From: Oceanospirillum beijerinckii DSM 7166
Lineage (GTDB): Bacteria; Pseudomonadota; Gammaproteobacteria; Pseudomonadales; Halomonadaceae
DNA length: 64,000 nt
NCBI RefSeq assembly: GCF_000422425.1
Contig: NZ_AULT01000012.1
Coordinates: 1 to 64,000, forward strand
Direction of reading: 5' to 3'
Shown here: positions 3,131-62,100 of the stretch, in pieces
Layout: each line of letters begins with the position of its first letter
How positions within the stretch are numbered: the first letter of the stretch is position 1
The notes under the pieces: model-generated
Database searches by the model: none
Told to the model about the DNA's origin: nothing
The model's input: only the letters and a program-made list of their open reading frames with translations
Made by a program: the position numbers and the translations under genes

Positions 3131-4642
3131 GTGTACACCGACGCTTTTCAACAACTGGATCAACAGCTCACCGAACTACGCCACTTCTGGCAGTTCCAAC
3201 CTTTCCACCACAGCGAAATGCCCTGGCAGGACTGCTTTCCCATGGGCAATTACAGCACCTCCAAAGCTTCCCTTTCTTTGGCGCAAGCACTGCAGGAATT
3301 AGATCAAAACCAGTTAGAAGAGTTACAGCAGGATGTGCATAACTTAGCACGCTGGCTCACCCCCTGGATTCCACAGGCCGAAGCTCTGATTTCACTCACT
3401 GAACAAGGGGTTAACTCTGTTGATAACTTAACCACAAGGCAAATAGAAACTGAGCAGGATCAGTTAGTTCAGAAACAGCAGCCTGTGTTTAACTTATCCA
3501 CAACAACAAGACAAAATTCTTTCTCCGCTCAAGATGAATTACCAGCAGAATCAGCACAACTCAAACGTTTTGCACAGGGTATCCCCGGTCGAAAATGGCA
3601 ACAGATGCGCTATTTTGTCCGTCATCTACAGCCTTGGTTAGCTCAAGAGCAGAAACAGTCACAACAAGTAACAACCTCAGATCAATCAGTTAATAATTGC
3701 AGCGACAGTGACTGTAAGTGTGAACCAGAAAACACTCGCCATATTCTGGAATGGTGTGCCGGTAAAGGTCATCTGGGACGACTGATCGCCTACCAACAAC
3801 AAGAAAATCCAGAAGAGACAGCTTCACAAGATCACTATCAAATCACCAGTCTGGAGTGGCAACAGAAGCTCTGTCGGCAAGGTGAGCAGGAAGCTCATAA
3901 GTGGCAACTACAGCAAAGCTTTGTTCATGGTGATGCTTTTGATCAACAAGCTGGCGAGTTAATTCAGACCAATACCCACGCTGTTGCGCTGCATGCCTGT
4001 GGCGATCTCCACTGCCAGCTCATTCATCATGCCAGTCAAAGACAAGCCAGAAGCCTGTTGATCGCCCCTTGCTGCTATCATCTGATCCGCGCAGACAGCT
4101 ATAAGCCGCTGTCCCAACAAGCACGACAGTCCCAGATCCAACTCAGCAAGCAGGATTTGAAAATTCCCCTGCAGGAAACCGTGACCGGCGGTCAGCGTAT
4201 CGGTAATCTGCGTGATACCGAACTGCTGTGGCGAATGGCCTTTGATCAACTGCAAAAACAGCAGCTTAACAGCAACGACTATATGCCACTGCCCACCATT
4301 CCCAAGCACCTGCTAACTGGCGAGTTTAAAGACTTTATTGACTGGGCGATCAGCAATCGGAAGTTAGATCAGTGTATAAGTGTGGATATGGATGTAGATG
4401 TGAAAGCAGGTGTGGATAAACTCAATCTGGATAGTTATCTGGAGAAGGGCCAACAGCGAGTACAGCAAATCCGTCGTATGGAACTGGTTCAACACCTGTT
4501 CCGTCGTCCACTGGAACTCTGGCTGGTACTGGATCGTATGCTGAGACTGCAAGAAGCGGGGTTTCACGTGGAACTTACTGAGTTCTGTCAGAAAAATCTC
4601 ACGCCCAGGAATTTGTTGATCAAAGCTTATCGCAGCGATTAA
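3131..4642 (+). CDS. methyltransferase-like protein (Methyltransf_32/METTL25 type)
   Basis: A 503-residue soluble protein with no signal peptide. The central region carries an AdoMet-binding style motif, LEWCAGKGHLGRL (about 200-212). Further on are VALHACGDLH (about 285) and LIAPCCYHL (about 313), the pattern of the Methyltransf_32 group of putative RNA or protein methyltransferases. The substrate is unknown to me. The N-terminal third is rich in Gln and Leu, with a poorly conserved-looking insert around residues 95-140. Translation starts at GTG 3131; the first in-frame ATG would remove 28 residues including the start of the folded region, so GTG is preferred. The gene stands alone between deaD and a thioesterase gene. 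A parS-like site and an exact DnaA box (3494-3502) lie inside it. Confidence 0.7.
   Translation: MYTDAFQQLDQQLTELRHFWQFQPFHHSEMPWQDCFPMGNYSTSKASLSLAQALQELDQNQLEELQQDVHNLARWLTPWIPQAEALISLTEQGVNSVDNLTTRQIETEQDQLVQKQQPVFNLSTTTRQNSFSAQDELPAESAQLKRFAQGIPGRKWQQMRYFVRHLQPWLAQEQKQSQQVTTSDQSVNNCSDSDCKCEPENTRHILEWCAGKGHLGRLIAYQQQENPEETASQDHYQITSLEWQQKLCRQGEQEAHKWQLQQSFVHGDAFDQQAGELIQTNTHAVALHACGDLHCQLIHHASQRQARSLLIAPCCYHLIRADSYKPLSQQARQSQIQLSKQDLKIPLQETVTGGQRIGNLRDTELLWRMAFDQLQKQQLNSNDYMPLPTIPKHLLTGEFKDFIDWAISNRKLDQCISVDMDVDVKAGVDKLNLDSYLEKGQQRVQQIRRMELVQHLFRRPLELWLVLDRMLRLQEAGFHVELTEFCQKNLTPRNLLIKAYRSD
4560..4575. other. parS-like site 1 (imperfect)
   Basis: GGTTTCACGTGGAACT has the full 14-base core GTTTCACGTGGAAC of the ParB-binding parS palindrome; only the two outermost bases differ from TGTTTCACGTGGAACA. 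It lies inside the methyltransferase-like gene, about 7 kb from oriC, where parS sites are expected. Confidence 0.6.
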
Positions 4643-4765
4643 CTGAATCTGGCTCTTTGTGCATAACATACAGACAGAACCCGACGTTCACGTTCAATAA
4701 CAGCCAAACCAGCCCAAACCCCGTATTATCGCTTTGAACAACAAAAACAACAAAGTGAGTCAAAT

Positions 4766-5221
4766 ATGCAGCCTTTTGCCGAATTTTCACCCAAAAACCC
4801 TAACTATCAGCAGGAAGTCGAGCGAGTACTGACTGCAGCTCCCTTTATCCAGTTCCTAGGCCTGCAAGCCGACAAGATCGAACCGGGTTTGTGCTACACC
4901 AAACTAAAAGTCCGGGAAGACCTGCAACAGCAGGACGGCTTTGTTCATGCCGGTGTACAAGCCACCATCTGTGACCACACCGCAGGCACTGCCGGAGCCA
5001 CCCTGATCGCCGAAGGCAAAAAGGTGCTTACTGCCGAATTTAAGATCAACCTGCTCAGACCCGGCGCAGGCAAATATCTGGTGTGTAAATCAGCGGTACT
5101 TAAACCCGGTAATACCCTGATTATCGCTGAGTCTATGCTGTTTGCTTTACCAGAAGAGGATAGTGCAGAAGAAAAGTGGAACCTGATTGCTAAAGCGACT
5201 GTGACACTGGCTGTGGTTTAA
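4766..5221 (+). CDS. PaaI-type hotdog-fold thioesterase
   Basis: A 151-residue cytoplasmic protein with the hotdog-fold pattern: a helix with FIQFLGLQADKIEPG (about 27-41), then DGFVHAGVQATICDHTAG (about 57-74), the hotdog helix carrying the catalytic His/Asp region, and strands ending in a hydrophobic tail. Such enzymes hydrolyse acyl-CoA or aryl-acyl-CoA thioesters; the actual substrate cannot be read from sequence. The length is typical for the family. It follows the methyltransferase-like gene by 123 bases on the same strand and is not obviously co-transcribed with it. GTGAG upstream of the ATG at 4766 is a modest ribosome binding site. Confidence 0.85.
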   Translation: MQPFAEFSPKNPNYQQEVERVLTAAPFIQFLGLQADKIEPGLCYTKLKVREDLQQQDGFVHAGVQATICDHTAGTAGATLIAEGKKVLTAEFKINLLRPGAGKYLVCKSAVLKPGNTLIIAESMLFALPEEDSAEEKWNLIAKATVTLAVV

Positions 5222-5316
5222 ATAGCCATAATTTAACTACCCACCCAGAGATACAGGCAGCATCCCCGATAGCACTTATACTGCTAGCATCACCCTAAGT
5301 TTTTTATGGTTTGGAG

Positions 5317-6114
5317 ATGCCTGTATCGAAACGGCTTCGTCTGCCTTACATACTGCTAATCACTTGGCTTAGCCTCTTTACTGCAAGCTCACAGGCTGCT
5401 GATAAGTCAGTGGTACTTACTCTGGTAGCTGATCCCTATTGCCCCTATAACTGTGCTTACGACGCCATACAGCCTGGTTATGTAATTGACCTGGCGCGGA
5501 TGATTTTTGAGCCTGAGGGCTATCAGGTGCAGTATCAGATACTGCCGTGGTCACGGGCAGTCAATGAGGTCAGAGAAGGGAATTTCACAGCAGCCATTGG
5601 TGTCAGCCAACAAAATGGCAGGGGACTGATTTTACCGAAGCAATCTATCGGTATCGTAAACGATATCTTTATGGTTCACCGCTCTAGTCACTGGCAGTAT
5701 CAAGGGGTTCACTCTCTGAAGCAGATCCATTTAGGTTCTGTAGCCAGTTACGACTATGGTGATGAGCTCAATCGTTATCTGAAAGATCCGGCCAATCAAC
5801 ACAGGGGTCAGTCTCTGGTGGGTGATCAGGCGGTTGAGCGTAATCTTAGGATGCTGGCCCGTAAGCGTATTGATGCCTATATCGAAGATGCCAATGTCGG
5901 TTTTTATATGGCGGCAACCCTAGGGCTTGCAGGGCAGTTTAAGTCGGCAGGCTCAAAAGGAAAGTCTATGCCCATCTATCTGGGCTTTTCACCAAAACTT
6001 GGTCTATCACCGAAGCTCGCTCAGTTGTTTGATCGTCGCTTGCAGCAGCTGAGAGAAGAGGGCAAGTTGAAGCTATTACTGCGTCGCTATCATCTGGATG
6101 ATTGGATTGAATAG
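5317..6114 (+). CDS. periplasmic solute-binding protein, family 3 (amino-acid type)
   Basis: About 265 residues with a cleavable signal peptide (basic KRLRLP, hydrophobic stretch, SSQA before the mature start) followed by a type-II periplasmic binding fold: VLTLVADPYCPYN, PGYVIDLARMIFEPEGYQVQY and WSRAVNEVREGNF are characteristic of the SBP_bac_3 family. No permease or ATPase gene is adjacent, so it may be an orphan receptor-type binding protein rather than part of a local ABC transporter. The ligand is unknown; amino acid-like is the family default. Two starts are possible: TTG at 5311 or ATG at 5317. I give the ATG, though GGAG abuts it directly, so the TTG is not excluded. Confidence 0.8.
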   Translation: MPVSKRLRLPYILLITWLSLFTASSQAADKSVVLTLVADPYCPYNCAYDAIQPGYVIDLARMIFEPEGYQVQYQILPWSRAVNEVREGNFTAAIGVSQQNGRGLILPKQSIGIVNDIFMVHRSSHWQYQGVHSLKQIHLGSVASYDYGDELNRYLKDPANQHRGQSLVGDQAVERNLRMLARKRIDAYIEDANVGFYMAATLGLAGQFKSAGSKGKSMPIYLGFSPKLGLSPKLAQLFDRRLQQLREEGKLKLLLRRYHLDDWIE

Positions 6115-6240
6115 CTCTATTTATTAAATGGAGCTAGTTGAGACTTTTTATTTGCTCAACCAAACGCCTTGCTAGCAGTAGCCATCACATTAGTGACTGA
6201 AGCTCTGCTCTGCTGTAACGACAATAATCGGAGCTCTAAA

Positions 6241-6561
6241 ATGCATAAGTTTATCGGTCGCTGGCGTATTACTTGGATGGAGGTCTGGGATCAGGACTAC
6301 ATCGATTGCGAACAACCAGGCTATTTTGAGTTTACCGCTAATAACCAAGGTGAATTTGCTTTTGGCTATGTCGAGGGGCAATTGGATGTTCGCTATTCCA
6401 GTAGACAAAAAAGATTAGATTTCACGTGGGCTGGTTGTGATGAAATGGATGAATGTAGTGGCCGAGGTTTTTTTAAATTTTCAGATGACAACACAGGTGA
6501 AGGACAGATTTATTTTCACCTAGGGGAGGAGTCTGCGGTAAAAATTGAACGACTTTCCTAA
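6241..6561 (+). CDS. small acidic hypothetical protein
   Basis: A 106-residue protein I do not recognise by name. ATG 6241 has GGAG seven bases upstream; an upstream TTG in the same frame has no such signal. The sequence is rich in aromatic and acidic residues (GRWRITWMEVW, DEMDECSGRGFFKF) with alternating patterns that suggest an all-beta fold, and has no signal peptide or membrane segment. It contains three cysteines. It stands alone between the binding-protein gene and a bidirectional terminator, and no function can be inferred from the neighbours. Confidence 0.7.
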   Translation: MHKFIGRWRITWMEVWDQDYIDCEQPGYFEFTANNQGEFAFGYVEGQLDVRYSSRQKRLDFTWAGCDEMDECSGRGFFKFSDDNTGEGQIYFHLGEESAVKIERLS

Positions 6562-6594
6562 GAGCTATCGATCAAGAATAAGCTCCGACATAGA

Positions 6595-6625
6595 GCCTTC
6601 TCTCCAGCTAAAGAGAAGGCTTTTA
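6595..6625. terminator. bidirectional terminator between convergent genes
   Basis: A perfect 9-base stem, GCCTTCTCT (6595-6603) with AGAGAAGGC (6612-6620), loop of 8, then TTTTAT on the plus strand. It lies between the small hypothetical gene (plus) and mnmE (minus), so it probably serves the plus gene and possibly both. Confidence 0.8.
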
Positions 6626-6650
6626 TCTATATTTTTATACAGTACTGGTT

Positions 6651-8030
6651 TTACTTACCAATACAGAAAGAACCAAAGATCTTACCCAGCAGATCATCGG
6701 CACTTATCTGGCCGGTAATCTCGCCCAGGGCCTGTTGCGCCATACGCAGGTCTTCCGCCAGTAGCTCACCAGCCCCCATCGTCGTTAGCTGATAGTGACC
6801 GTTATTCAGGAATTCTTCCGCTTGGTTTAGCGCATCGATATGACGGCGGCGGGCACTGAAACCGCCTTCGGTGGTGCCGGTGTAACCCATCACCTCTTTC
6901 AGGTGCTGTTTTAAGTTATCCACACCATCACCGGATTTAGCGCAAAGACGAATCACCGGAGTGTTTGTGGATAAGTCAATTCCGGCGTTTTCGCCGCTCT
7001 GATCAATCTTATTGCGGATCACGCTGATACGGGTGCCTTTGGGTAACTGATCAACAAAGTCCGGCCAGATATCGTGAGGCTCGTTAGATTCCGTGCTGGT
7101 GCTATCGACCATCAGTAGAATCTTGTCCGCCTTGTTGATCTCATCCCAGGCACGTTGAACACCGATCTGTTCCACCTGATCCGGGGTTTCGCGCAGGCCT
7201 GCGGTATCAACAATATGCAGCGGCATACCGTCAATATGGATATGCTCACGCAGTACATCACGGGTGGTACCGGCGATATCGGTCACAATGGCACTATCAC
7301 GCCCAGATAGAGCATTAAGCAGGCTGGATTTACCCGCATTAGGCCGACCGGCAATTACTACAGTCATGCCTTCCTGCATCAGAGCACCTTGGCTGGCGCT
7401 GTCACGTACCAGGCTCAGTTCGCGCTGAATCGCTTCCAGATCGCCCATCACCTTACCGTCGGCCAGGAAGTCGATCTCTTCCTCAGGGAAGTCGATAGCG
7501 GCTTCTACGTAGATTCTGAGGTGGGTTAACTTATCCACAAGGCCATGAACCTTACTGGAGAATTCGCCCTGTAGGGAACGGATGGCATTACGGGCCGCTT
7601 GCTCGGAGACACTGTCGATCAGATCGGCGATGGCCTCCGCCTGCGCCAGATCCATCTTGTCATTCAGAAAGGCACGCTCGGAAAACTCACCGGGACGGGC
7701 CAGACGCACACCGCACTCCAAAACCCGTTTCAGTAGCAGGTCAATGATGACGGGGCCACCGTGGCCCTGCAGCTCCAGTACATCTTCACCGGTAAAGGAG
7801 TTCGGACCGGGAAAGTAAAGCGCGATACCTTCATCCAGTACCGCACCACAAGCCTGGCTACCCTGATCGTAAAACGGGCCGTAGTGAGCGTAGCGGGGCT
7901 GAGGTACCAGACCTAACAATTCCTGTGCCACAGCAGCGGCCTGAGGCCCAGAGACACGAACAATCCCCACACCACCTCGACCGGGCGGGGTGGCTTGTGC
8001 GGCTATGGTATCCAGATCGGCAGTGGCCAT
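6651..8030 (-). CDS. mnmE: tRNA modification GTPase MnmE (TrmE)
   Basis: A 459-residue cytoplasmic GTPase that with MnmG installs the 5-carboxymethylaminomethyl group on wobble uridine of several tRNAs. The N-terminal folate-binding domain (about 1-120) begins [19 protein letters not shown]. The G domain is inserted in the helical domain: [10 protein letters not shown] (P-loop, about 230), DIAGTTRD (G2), DTAG (G3), NKID (G4). The protein ends in the family signature FCIGK, whose Cys is required for modification. The length is standard. In many relatives mnmG, rsmG, parA and parB follow; here a terminator and unrelated genes come instead. Two exact DnaA boxes lie in the gene (6966-6974 and 7531-7539) and another just upstream (8068-8076). 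Confidence 0.97.
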
Positions 8031-8134
8031 GGCATCGTCCTCTCACAAATATCTAAAACAAACAGGGTGTGGATAAGTTATCAGGCAAGTGGCTGAGTCT
8101 GCTCACTTGCAAAACGCTTGTCTTCTATAAAAAC

Positions 8135-59682: not shown

Positions 59683-60729
59683 TCAGGAGCGGCTGTGTAA
59701 TTCTGTTTGTGGTTTGAGCTGTTGTATCATGCCGACAATCGCTTTGAGCTGTTGATTATCGCGGGTATAAAAGCGGTCTTTCTCATAACCCCACCAATCC
59801 CAACAGCCCTGTGGATTAGGCAGGCTCTTTTTCGCCTGTGGATAGAGTAATACGATGCGGTTGGTATCGGCCCAGCGATTAAAGCCGCTGTGCTGGAAAA
59901 AACTATTACCAATCACTTCAGCACTTTGACTGCAGCCGTGCAGTACCACATGCAGCTGGCACTCCTCTTCACCACTCTTACAAGCCTGCGGCAGATAGAG
60001 ATAACCCCGGTCCAGCATGCCTTTACCTTCATAGAAGTCACTTTGCCCAAATTCGATCATGTCACCTTCCGGCTGATTGCTTGGGGCGTTGAGCTTGCCA
60101 TACAGCACTCTGAGTGCCTCCCCTGCCCCATCAAAATGGCAGTTTTGCAGGTGGTTGCCATCTTCAACACCGCACTCAGTATTGGTTAACAGGGTTGGAA
60201 AGGCATGGCCGGCCTGAGGTAAGCCAGTAATTCGTATATTGTAAGAAGCGACCAGTTTTTGATAGAAACCGATCAGGCTTTCAGTGATTTCAGGCTTTAC
60301 CACCTGATCTTTTTGACCATAGAAGATATACACAGGGTCATCGACCAGTAGAGCGGGGTCGCCAATCAAGCGCTTACGGCTGGCTCGGTGCAACATGGCC
60401 ATACGTTCATCTAAGCTGGCAATAGGAAATTGGGTCTGCATACAGGACATCAATGCGTGGCTCAGCCCTTTCATGGCACAGCCCCAAGGGCCGGCAGAAA
60501 AGATAGCAGCCCCTTCAATCAGTTCGGGGTATGCCAGATGCAACTGGTTTGCCAGATAACCGCCCGATGAAAAACCGGAAACGGTGACCCTGGGATGATC
60601 GAGGCTGGGGAGGGAAGGAAGCCGGGAATAATGCGTATCCGGCTCACTGGAACTACAAGCTGTCAGTAGAAGCAGGCTCAATAGGAAAAAAATAACAAAA
60701 ATAAATGGTGTTGATTGGCGACAGTGCAT
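59683..60729 (-). CDS. PHB-depolymerase-like esterase lipoprotein
   Basis: A 348-residue alpha/beta-hydrolase of the LpqC/poly(3-hydroxybutyrate) depolymerase type. The N-terminus has a lipoprotein signal (FFLLSLLLLTAC, lipobox Cys about 25). The nucleophile elbow is GFSSGGYLANQ (Ser about 54). The catalytic His is likely in the PQAGHAFP stretch (about 172-179), and FYGQKDQVV (about 136-144) is a candidate for the acid residue. The C-terminal half has VLHGCSQSAEVIG (about 259), which looks like a second oxyanion-type motif of the family. The substrate is uncertain: PHB, other polyesters or feruloyl-type esters. It is on its own transcript with a DnaA-box cluster about 240 bases upstream. Confidence 0.85.
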   Translation of the reverse strand: MHCRQSTPFIFVIFFLLSLLLLTACSSSEPDTHYSRLPSLPSLDHPRVTVSGFSSGGYLANQLHLAYPELIEGAAIFSAGPWGCAMKGLSHALMSCMQTQFPIASLDERMAMLHRASRKRLIGDPALLVDDPVYIFYGQKDQVVKPEITESLIGFYQKLVASYNIRITGLPQAGHAFPTLLTNTECGVEDGNHLQNCHFDGAGEALRVLYGKLNAPSNQPEGDMIEFGQSDFYEGKGMLDRGYLYLPQACKSGEEECQLHVVLHGCSQSAEVIGNSFFQHSGFNRWADTNRIVLLYPQAKKSLPNPQGCWDWWGYEKDRFYTRDNQQLKAIVGMIQQLKPQTELHSRS

Positions 60730-60771
60730 GTCTAAACCTGGGCTGAAGGGTATGACGCTAAAGATAACGAA

Positions 60772-60791
60772 AATAGGCTAAAAAGCCTATT
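60772..60791. other. hairpin in the upstream region of the esterase gene
   Basis: AATAGGCT (60772-60779) pairs with AGCCTATT (60784-60791) around AAAA; another AATAGGCT follows at about 60803. On the minus strand it is followed by TTCG and a short T-rich stretch. It could be the terminator of the kinase/HD-GYP transcript or a leader structure of the esterase. Confidence 0.4.
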
Positions 60792-60967
60792 AAGCCTTAT
60801 GCTAATAGGCTGAGTTAAGGGAATCTGCTACCTATCTTGAGGTAGTTCTCCAACTCTTTTCTTTATCTGAACATGACTAAAAAGTGGACCTCTTTTACCC
60901 CGGAAAGAGCATCTGTATTTGCACCTTTTCCCAGAGGGCTGTGGTCAGAATATGGCGCTATCAGTTG

Positions 60968-61022
60968 TTATCCACAATTTTTATCCACGAGCTACCCATG
61001 GTTAACCACAAAGTTATCCACA
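60968..61022 (+). other. cluster of four DnaA boxes
   Basis: Four boxes in 55 bases, all in the same orientation: TTATCCACA (60968-60976), TTATCCACG (60981-60989), TTAACCACA (61002-61010) and TTATCCACA (61014-61022). A fifth, weaker TTATCCATA lies inside the next gene at 61086-61094. The cluster fills the intergenic space just past the HD-GYP gene stop and upstream of the esterase gene. The known functional analogues are datA-like DnaA-titration or ADP/ATP-reloading sites; a role in esterase-gene control is also possible. Confidence 0.8.
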
Positions 61023-61032
61023 GGTGAAGGGG

Positions 61033-62100
61033 TTATGTCCCAGGTTCTTTGTGGGTATCACGGATCATCAGAATTTCTGTCAGGTTATCCATAAAAGCAT
61101 CCACTAATGCCGGATCAAAGTGCTTGCCTTTGTTTTCCTGAAGCAGGTTCAGTGCATCTTCTACCGGCCAGGCTTTCTTGTAAGGTCGTTCAGAGGTTAG
61201 AGCATCAAATACATCGGCGATGGCACATATACGGCCGACCAGCGGAATTTCATCCCCTTTCAGGCCATTAGGATAACCACTGCCATCCCACTTTTCATGG
61301 TGAGTCAGGGCAATGTCCCGCGCCATTTTTAGCAGCTCGGATTCAGCACCTTCCAGAATATCTGCTCCAATCTGAGCATGACTCTGCATGATCTCCCATT
61401 CATCCGGTTCAAACTTACCGGGTTTAAGTAGGATATGATCGGGAATACCGATTTTGCCGATATCGTGCATCGGGCTGGCGTTCAGCAACAGATCGCACTC
61501 GGATTCACTCATTCCCATCACCTCGCCCAGAAGACGGGAGATTTTGCTCATACGCACAATATGCAGGCCGGTTTCATTATCCCGATATTCTGCGGCACGA
61601 CCCAGTCGGCGTACCACTTGCAGACGGGTTTCATTCAGCTCTGCGGTACGCTCCTGAACTTTATGCTCCAGAGACTCATTTAATCGCTCTAATGCTTCGC
61701 GGTAGAGCTTACTTTCCAGCAGGTTGCTGACCCGATGTAGCAGCTCGTTACGTTCAAACGGTTTGGTAACATAGTCTCGGGCGCCCAGTTCCAGCGCTTG
61801 CGTACGAAACTCCTGAGCACTCTGAGCTGTCAGAACCAGCACCTGAGGTGTACTGCCAAAGCGTTCTGTTAATGCCTTCATGACGGCAAAGCCATCCATA
61901 TAAGGCATATTAAGATCCAGCAAAATCAGATCATAGTGATGTAACTCAAACAGATCGCAGACCAGACGGGGGTCCATGGTTGACTGAATACGCTCGTATC
62001 CTGCTTTGGCCAACGTACGTTCCAGCAGTTTTACATTGACTGGTTCATCATCAACTATCAGAAGCTTAGCGTTATATATGCTTATCTCGGATGCCGTCAT
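61033..62100 (-). CDS. response regulator with HD-GYP phosphodiesterase domain
   Basis: A 355-residue RpfG-type protein. The receiver domain (about 12-130) has the acidic pair DDE, phospho-acceptor Asp in LILLDLNMPYMDG (about 60) and Lys in YVTKPFER. A coiled-coil linker follows, then the HD-GYP domain (about 165-350) with HDIGKIGIPD (about 214), HHEKWDGSGYPNGLKGDEIPLVGRI (about 266) and the ADVFDAL element; all metal ligands appear present. It degrades c-di-GMP to GMP. The start codon overlaps the stop of the upstream histidine kinase by one base (TAATG), so the two are translated as a pair and are almost certainly cognate. Confidence 0.93.
   Translation of the reverse strand: MTASEISIYNAKLLIVDDEPVNVKLLERTLAKAGYERIQSTMDPRLVCDLFELHHYDLILLDLNMPYMDGFAVMKALTERFGSTPQVLVLTAQSAQEFRTQALELGARDYVTKPFERNELLHRVSNLLESKLYREALERLNESLEHKVQERTAELNETRLQVVRRLGRAAEYRDNETGLHIVRMSKISRLLGEVMGMSESECDLLLNASPMHDIGKIGIPDHILLKPGKFEPDEWEIMQSHAQIGADILEGAESELLKMARDIALTHHEKWDGSGYPNGLKGDEIPLVGRICAIADVFDALTSERPYKKAWPVEDALNLLQENKGKHFDPALVDAFMDNLTEILMIRDTHKEPGT

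What the first reader, a model, noticed from the sequence alone, without database searches (positions are those of the whole stretch)
60968..61022. Tight cluster of four same-direction DnaA boxes 50 kb from oriC
Two exact TTATCCACA and two near matches lie in 55 bases with 12-21-base spacings, in a non-coding gap. Such clusters outside oriC in other bacteria are DnaA-titration (datA) or reactivation (DARS) sites. No such site is established for this lineage as far as I know. It could alternatively make the esterase gene DnaA-responsive.
Basis: partly seen in the sequence, partly recalled or inferred. Interest (0 to 1): 0.65.

Follow-up and report, generated by a model that had tools for sequence, protein, structure and literature searches.

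The report
Conserved DnaA-binding array outside the origin
A short, conserved row of four docking sites for the protein that starts DNA copying sits outside the replication origin in Oceanospirillum bacteria; it probably helps control when the chromosome is copied, but this has not been tested.

Summary
Window 60968-61022 holds four same-strand DnaA boxes (two exact, two with one mismatch; starts 13, 21 and 12 bp apart) in a 303-bp gap between a response-regulator gene (receiver plus HD domain) and an esterase gene. None of 200 shuffled windows gave even two exact same-strand boxes within 60 bp.

The genus is Oceanospirillum. All six genomes of the genus that could be searched keep the array in the same gap, with box2-21-box3-12-box4 fixed. 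In an even draw of 390 genomes of the order, only this genome has the geometry.

It is not DARS: inverted box I is absent in 6 of 6, whereas 20 of 24 sites found the same way in other genera have it. It does not meet the datA definition: no IHF-like site at a shared position. Box3-box4 does resemble a box pair of E. coli datA.

Best reading: an IHF-independent, head-to-tail DnaA-binding array acting as an initiator sink near the origin. Main rival: DnaA control of transcription between the flanking genes. Neither DnaA binding nor function was tested. In one species the array lies elsewhere, still with the same genes.

The parts
60968..60976 (+). DnaA box 1, TTATCCACA (exact). A good box also in G002; degenerate in the other four species.
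60981..60989 (+). DnaA box 2, TTATCCACG; TTAYCCAC kept in 6 of 6 species.
61002..61010 (+). DnaA box 3, weak (TTAACCACA); TTARCMACA in 6 of 6 species, 21 bp after box 2.
61014..61022 (+). DnaA box 4, TTATCCACA (exact); exact and followed by GG in 6 of 6 species, 12 bp after box 3.
61033..62100 (-). Response regulator with receiver and HD (HD_5) domains; frame broken in the O. maris and O. linum assemblies, where the array is kept.
59683..60729 (-). Esterase (Pfam Esterase_PHB), next gene downstream.
60786..60801 (.). CCTATTNNGCCTTATG motif 56 bp from the esterase start codon; probable esterase promoter or operator region, also conserved.

Best explanation
The array is a DnaA-binding site outside oriC that loads DnaA as a head-to-tail row. 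The strong box 4 anchors DnaA and recruits it to weak box 3, 12 bp away, then to boxes 2 and 1. Because it usually lies near the origin it is copied early, and so adds binding sites for ATP-DnaA just after initiation and damps re-initiation. It would work like datA and the Bacillus and Streptomyces DnaA-box clusters, but without the IHF site that defines datA. Shown here: the boxes, their fixed register, conservation in six species, lack of shared IHF, Fis and inverted-box features, and a position 42-49 kb from dnaA in the three species where it can be measured. Inferred: DnaA binding, oligomer formation and any effect on initiation.
For: Register box2-21-box3-12-box4 identical in 6 of 6 species; 0 of 200 shuffles; no second three-box match in the genome. 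Over the 44-bp core, identity exceeds the best 44-bp match in the neighbouring upstream stretch in 13 of 15 species pairs. All boxes face one way, as in the DnaA rows of E. coli oriC (PMC10380432, passages). Box3-box4 resembles a datA pair of E. coli. 42.3, 45.5 and 49.4 kb from dnaA in G003, G004 and G000. The array is intact in the two assemblies whose regulator frame is broken. Deleting six DnaA-box clusters in B. subtilis caused early initiation (PMC5295017, passages).
Against: No DnaA binding data. In O. multiglobuliferum (G005) the array is not on the 104.8 kb of contig downstream of dnaA but on another contig, with the same two genes, so gene linkage is kept better than position. The core is not the best-conserved stretch in 2 of 15 pairs: one tie, and G000/G005 0.68 against 0.80 elsewhere. 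Box 1 is degenerate in 4 of 6. [quoted passage not shown] subtilis.
Confidence: 0.5

Rival explanations
1. The array controls transcription: DnaA bound just past the regulator gene blocks or modulates read-through into the esterase gene, or acts on the esterase promoter, tying this unit to DnaA level.
For: The array is in the same regulator-esterase gap in 6 of 6 species and kept that neighbourhood where it moved (G005). The esterase frame is open in all six. That a DnaA-DnaA box complex can block RNA polymerase is known to me only from titles in a reference list (Schaefer and Messer, in PMC10950094).
Against: Distance from the array to the esterase motif varies from 42 to 166 bp in the five species where the motif was found, while the motif lies 36-57 bp from the esterase start in four of the five (146 bp in G003, start codon uncertain). 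The regulator frame is broken in two assemblies, array kept.
Confidence: 0.27
2. It is a true datA: IHF bends the DNA and DnaA on the array is driven to hydrolyse ATP.
For: Near-match of box3-box4 to a datA pair, CTTAACAACAGAGTTATCCACAGG against CTTGTAAACAGAGTTATCCACAGC; near the origin in most species.
Against: No IHF consensus with at most 1 mismatch at a shared position within 400 bp in 6 species, while the same scan found the datA site perfectly and a site at -84 in 13 of 19 DARS-like loci of other genera. It also missed sites at 2 of 6 DARS-A loci and at the 3 DARS-B loci, so absence is not proof.
Confidence: 0.13
3. Chance or neutral leftover in a genome rich in DnaA boxes.
For: 141 exact boxes in the genome against 31 for the reversed control.
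Against: 0 of 200 shuffles; register fixed in six species.
Confidence: 0.05
4. It is a DARS, a DnaA-reactivating site.
For: It shares the 12-bp weak-strong pair of the DARS core.
Against: No inverted box I at +14 in 6 of 6 (3-5 mismatches); the genus has better DARS-like cores at two other places.
Confidence: 0.02

Closest known systems
DnaA-box clusters outside oriC in Bacillus subtilis and Streptomyces coelicolor
   Same: Several DnaA boxes in a non-coding place outside oriC; no IHF or Fis site seen; near the origin in most species.
   Different: Only four boxes, all in one direction, one such site found per genome; no binding or deletion data.
E. coli datA
   Same: Weak-strong head-to-tail pair 12 bp apart with nearly the same letters; usually close to oriC.
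   Different: No shared IHF site; boxes 13 and 21 bp apart on one side, a coding sequence on the other; DnaA-ATP hydrolysis not tested.
DARS1 and DARS2
   Same: The 12-bp pair (boxes III and II).
   Different: Inverted box I missing; no shared Fis or IHF site.
oriC
   Same: The 21-12 head-to-tail geometry occurs on loci with dnaA or dnaN in 51 of 117 matches; box1-13-box2 resembles the pair upstream of mnmG in this genus.
   Different: GC skew switches elsewhere; no AT-rich unwinding element was noticed by eye next to the array.

Membership tests
DnaA-box cluster outside oriC (general) | Several DnaA boxes, more than chance, outside oriC | tested here: met
DnaA-box cluster outside oriC (general) | Conserved in relatives | tested here: met
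   6 of 6 Oceanospirillum genomes; not found outside the genus in 390 genomes of the order
DnaA-box cluster outside oriC (general) | Binds DnaA and restrains initiation in vivo | not testable with these tools
   needs ChIP-seq and a deletion strain
datA (DDAH) | IHF-binding site at a set distance from the essential boxes | tested here: not met
   no IHF-like site at a shared position in six species; consensus scan, can miss weak sites
datA (DDAH) | Weak-strong head-to-tail box pair | tested here: met
   the naming of the datA pair as boxes 7 and 2 is my reading
datA (DDAH) | Stimulates DnaA-ATP hydrolysis | not testable with these tools
   biochemistry needed
DARS | Box I head-to-head with box II at fixed spacing | tested here: not met
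   0 of 6 at the array; 20 of 24 sites in other genera
DARS2 | Fis and IHF sites beside the core | tested here: not met
   Fis consensus at no shared position at the array, but at -78 in 8 of 9 DARS-like loci of the genus; IHF
oriC | Box cluster at the GC-skew switch | tested here: not met
   the switch lies next to dnaA in the window and in G003 and G004, 42-49 kb away

The most novel reading that the evidence does not exclude
Oceanospirillum has evolved its own DnaA-sequestering or DnaA-inactivating locus that needs no IHF: a one-way array joining an oriC-like 13-bp box pair to a datA-like 12-bp pair. With the two DARS-like loci found in the same genus it would complete a DnaA control set built from other parts than in E. 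coli.
Probability: 0.3. Interest if true: 0.65.

Novelty: new member of a known kind. Interest (0 to 1): 0.5.

Why it matters
Loci outside oriC that restrain DnaA are established in few bacteria, and whether they need IHF is open. A compact, genus-wide array, beside two DARS-like loci in the same genus, would let the datA/DARS logic be tested outside the enterobacteria by removing about 57 bp.

Tried and rejected
DARS was rejected on geometry. The DARS-like site that other genera carry beside gltA was looked for next to gltA in Oceanospirillum and not found in 6 of 6; the genus has DARS-like cores at two other places. Strict datA was not met for lack of a shared IHF-like site. Two more distant regulator homologues at 57-60% identity in G007 and one in G028 lack the array. 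Comparing the neighbours of the 12-bp pair in relatives with those of E. coli datA, DARS1 and DARS2 gave no match. A tail-to-tail palindrome on G000:C6 was looked at as a DARS candidate and has the wrong orientation. My notes call the array the only conserved block of the gap; one search shows that this is too strong, because the esterase motif region is conserved too, and the claim is not made here. Which box orientation stops RNA polymerase was sought in papers and not answered.

Full report
Observation. The gap 60730-61032 lies between an esterase gene (Pfam Esterase_PHB) and a response regulator with an HD_5 domain, both on the - strand. In the window no other same-strand group of three boxes exists, and 0 of 200 dinucleotide shuffles gave even two exact same-strand boxes within 60 bp. 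Exact boxes are over-represented in the whole genome, 141 against 31 for the reversed pattern, but a relaxed three-box same-strand pattern matches only here in G000.

Conservation. The window's genome is G000, a 5.33-Mb draft of 99 contigs. A DNA search with the gap hit the array in three of these five (G001, G002, G004), hit only the esterase motif region in G005, and missed G003. Anchoring on the regulator protein showed the array in the same gap in all five. The core reads TTAYCCAC N13 TTARCMACA RAS TTATCCACAGG in 6 of 6. Box 1 is exact only in G000 and G002; elsewhere its place reads ATATCGACA, TTATTGACA, GTGTTCACA or GTAATGACA, and in G005 it is 2 bp nearer. Over the 44-bp core, identity is 0.68-0.84 in 15 species pairs. 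It is above the best 44-bp match in the neighbouring upstream stretch in 13 pairs, equal in one (G001/G003, 0.84) and below in one (G000/G005, 0.68 against 0.80). In species with a short gap that stretch includes esterase coding sequence, and in all it includes the motif region, so the array is one of two conserved blocks. The regulator frame is broken in two assemblies (in-frame TGA in O. maris, a frame change in O. linum), which may be assembly errors; the array is intact in both.

Spread. The 42-bp geometry occurs in 1 of 390 genomes drawn evenly from the order, the one being G000; no other Oceanospirillum genome was in that draw. Of these 117, 51 carry dnaA or dnaN on the fetched stretch, and 5 carry both flanking genes of this finding: the five Oceanospirillum records. 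So the spacing is one that DnaA arrays adopt repeatedly, often in origins.

Position. The array is 49.4 kb downstream of the dnaA start in G000, 42.3 kb in G003 and 45.5 kb in G004. In G001 and G002 dnaA and the array lie 30-31 kb and 5-10 kb from the ends of different contigs, compatible with the same place but not shown. In G005 the array is on another contig and so not within the 104.8 kb downstream of dnaA. oriC itself is not settled. GC skew changes sign at about 10-12 kb in the window, at about 558 kb in G004 and 198 kb in G003, each next to dnaA. But upstream of mnmG, 9.6-11.6 kb beyond dnaA in the four relatives with both on one contig, a 13-bp box pair followed by AT-rich DNA is present in 6 of 6 (two of the six with one variant box). 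From there the array is 54-56 kb away in G003 and G004.

What it is not. E. coli DARS1, read from MG1655, has box III, 12 bp, box II, 14 bp, inverted box I, as reviews state (PMC5742627 and PMC10380432, passages). A search of 38 relatives for the 12-bp pair matched 29 genomes. Of the 30 loci fetched, 24 are outside Oceanospirillum, and 20 of these have inverted box I at +14 with at most 2 mismatches; the six Oceanospirillum loci have 3-5 mismatches there. Fourteen of the 24 lie beside gltX and 12 of those also beside gltA. I gave 19 of the 24 to the IHF scan, leaving out L160, L165, L169, L186 and L189, of which L186 later proved DARS-like. An IHF consensus with at most 1 mismatch lies at -84 in 13 of the 19, at +89/+90 in 4 of 6 DARS-A loci, in none of 3 DARS-B loci at a shared place, and perfectly in E. 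coli datA; at the array no two species share one. The Fis consensus (as given in PMC4585315) sits at -78 in 8 of 9 DARS-like loci of Oceanospirillum and at no shared position at the array.

What it resembles. Box3-box4 reads CTTAACAACAGAGTTATCCACAGG in O. sediminis and CTTAACAACAGAGTTATCCACAGG in O. maris, against CTTGTAAACAGAGTTATCCACAGC in E. coli datA. That this datA pair is boxes 7 and 2 is my reading. Box1-box2 in G000, TTATCCACAATTTTTATCCACG, resembles the pair upstream of mnmG, TTATCCACAAAATTTATCCACA. So the array is built of modules seen at known DnaA platforms, all facing one way; head-to-tail boxes favour rows of ATP-DnaA (PMC10380432, passages).

Mechanism and rivals. I commit, at 0.5, to a head-to-tail DnaA-binding array acting as a sink, near the origin in most species. 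Clusters in B. subtilis and S. coelicolor are described as repressing untimely initiation (PMC5742627, passages), although another review calls their role in B. subtilis not significant after reporting early initiation when six are removed (PMC5295017, passages). The main rival, at 0.27, is control of transcription between regulator and esterase, because linkage to these genes is complete and survives the move in G005. Against it, the array lies 42-166 bp from the esterase motif in the five species where the motif was found, while the motif is 36-57 bp from the esterase start in four of the five. Strict datA gets 0.13, chance 0.05, DARS 0.02.

Literature. Searches with Oceanospirillum plus DnaA, and with Oceanospirillum, replication origin and DnaA box (two of three terms), listed no paper on DnaA-controlling loci in this genus; the first gave one unrelated genome paper, and of the second only 8 of 228 were listed. 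Only open-licence papers are held. DARS2 with its IHF and Fis sites is reported as conserved in gamma-proteobacteria related to E. coli (PMC4245941, passages), so the DARS-like loci noted here extend a known kind.

Noticed in passing
G000:C5:42876-42898 (L196, L229); L199-L203: DARS-like core A (box III -12- box II -14- inverted box I) in 6 of 6 Oceanospirillum genomes, with a Fis consensus at -78 in 5 of 6.
   Followed up: partly
G000:C41:25669 (L235); L230, L231, L234, L239: DARS-like core B in 5 of 6 Oceanospirillum genomes, not seen in G005; shares the AAAAARTRNNCAATYTRAG element upstream.
   Followed up: partly
L162-L164, L166-L168, L170-L172, L174, L181-L184: A DARS-like site beside gltX (14 loci) and mostly also gltA (12 of them) in other genera of the family, many with an IHF consensus at -84.
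   Followed up: partly
L146 (G000:C7) 494-714; L155-L159: Box pair 13 bp apart next to AT-rich DNA upstream of mnmG in all six species: a possible oriC or part of one, while GC skew points to dnaA.
   Followed up: partly
L147 (G000:C6) 1360-1382: Perfect tail-to-tail DnaA-box palindrome TGTGGATAACTGGGTTATCCACA in a gap after a stop codon.
   Followed up: no
L169 (G019:C1:1235129): Another genus of the family has a separate group of head-to-tail near-boxes about 64 kb from dnaA, on the upstream side.
   Followed up: no
window 3494-8076: Six exact DnaA boxes on both strands within 4.6 kb, in or near open reading frames including mnmE, on the far side of dnaA from the array.
   Followed up: no
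L032, L061, L092, L108, L112, L117: Limosilactobacillus genomes share a recurring three-box element of the same geometry with no dnaA or dnaN hit on the fetched stretch; perhaps a conserved cluster outside oriC there too.
   Followed up: no
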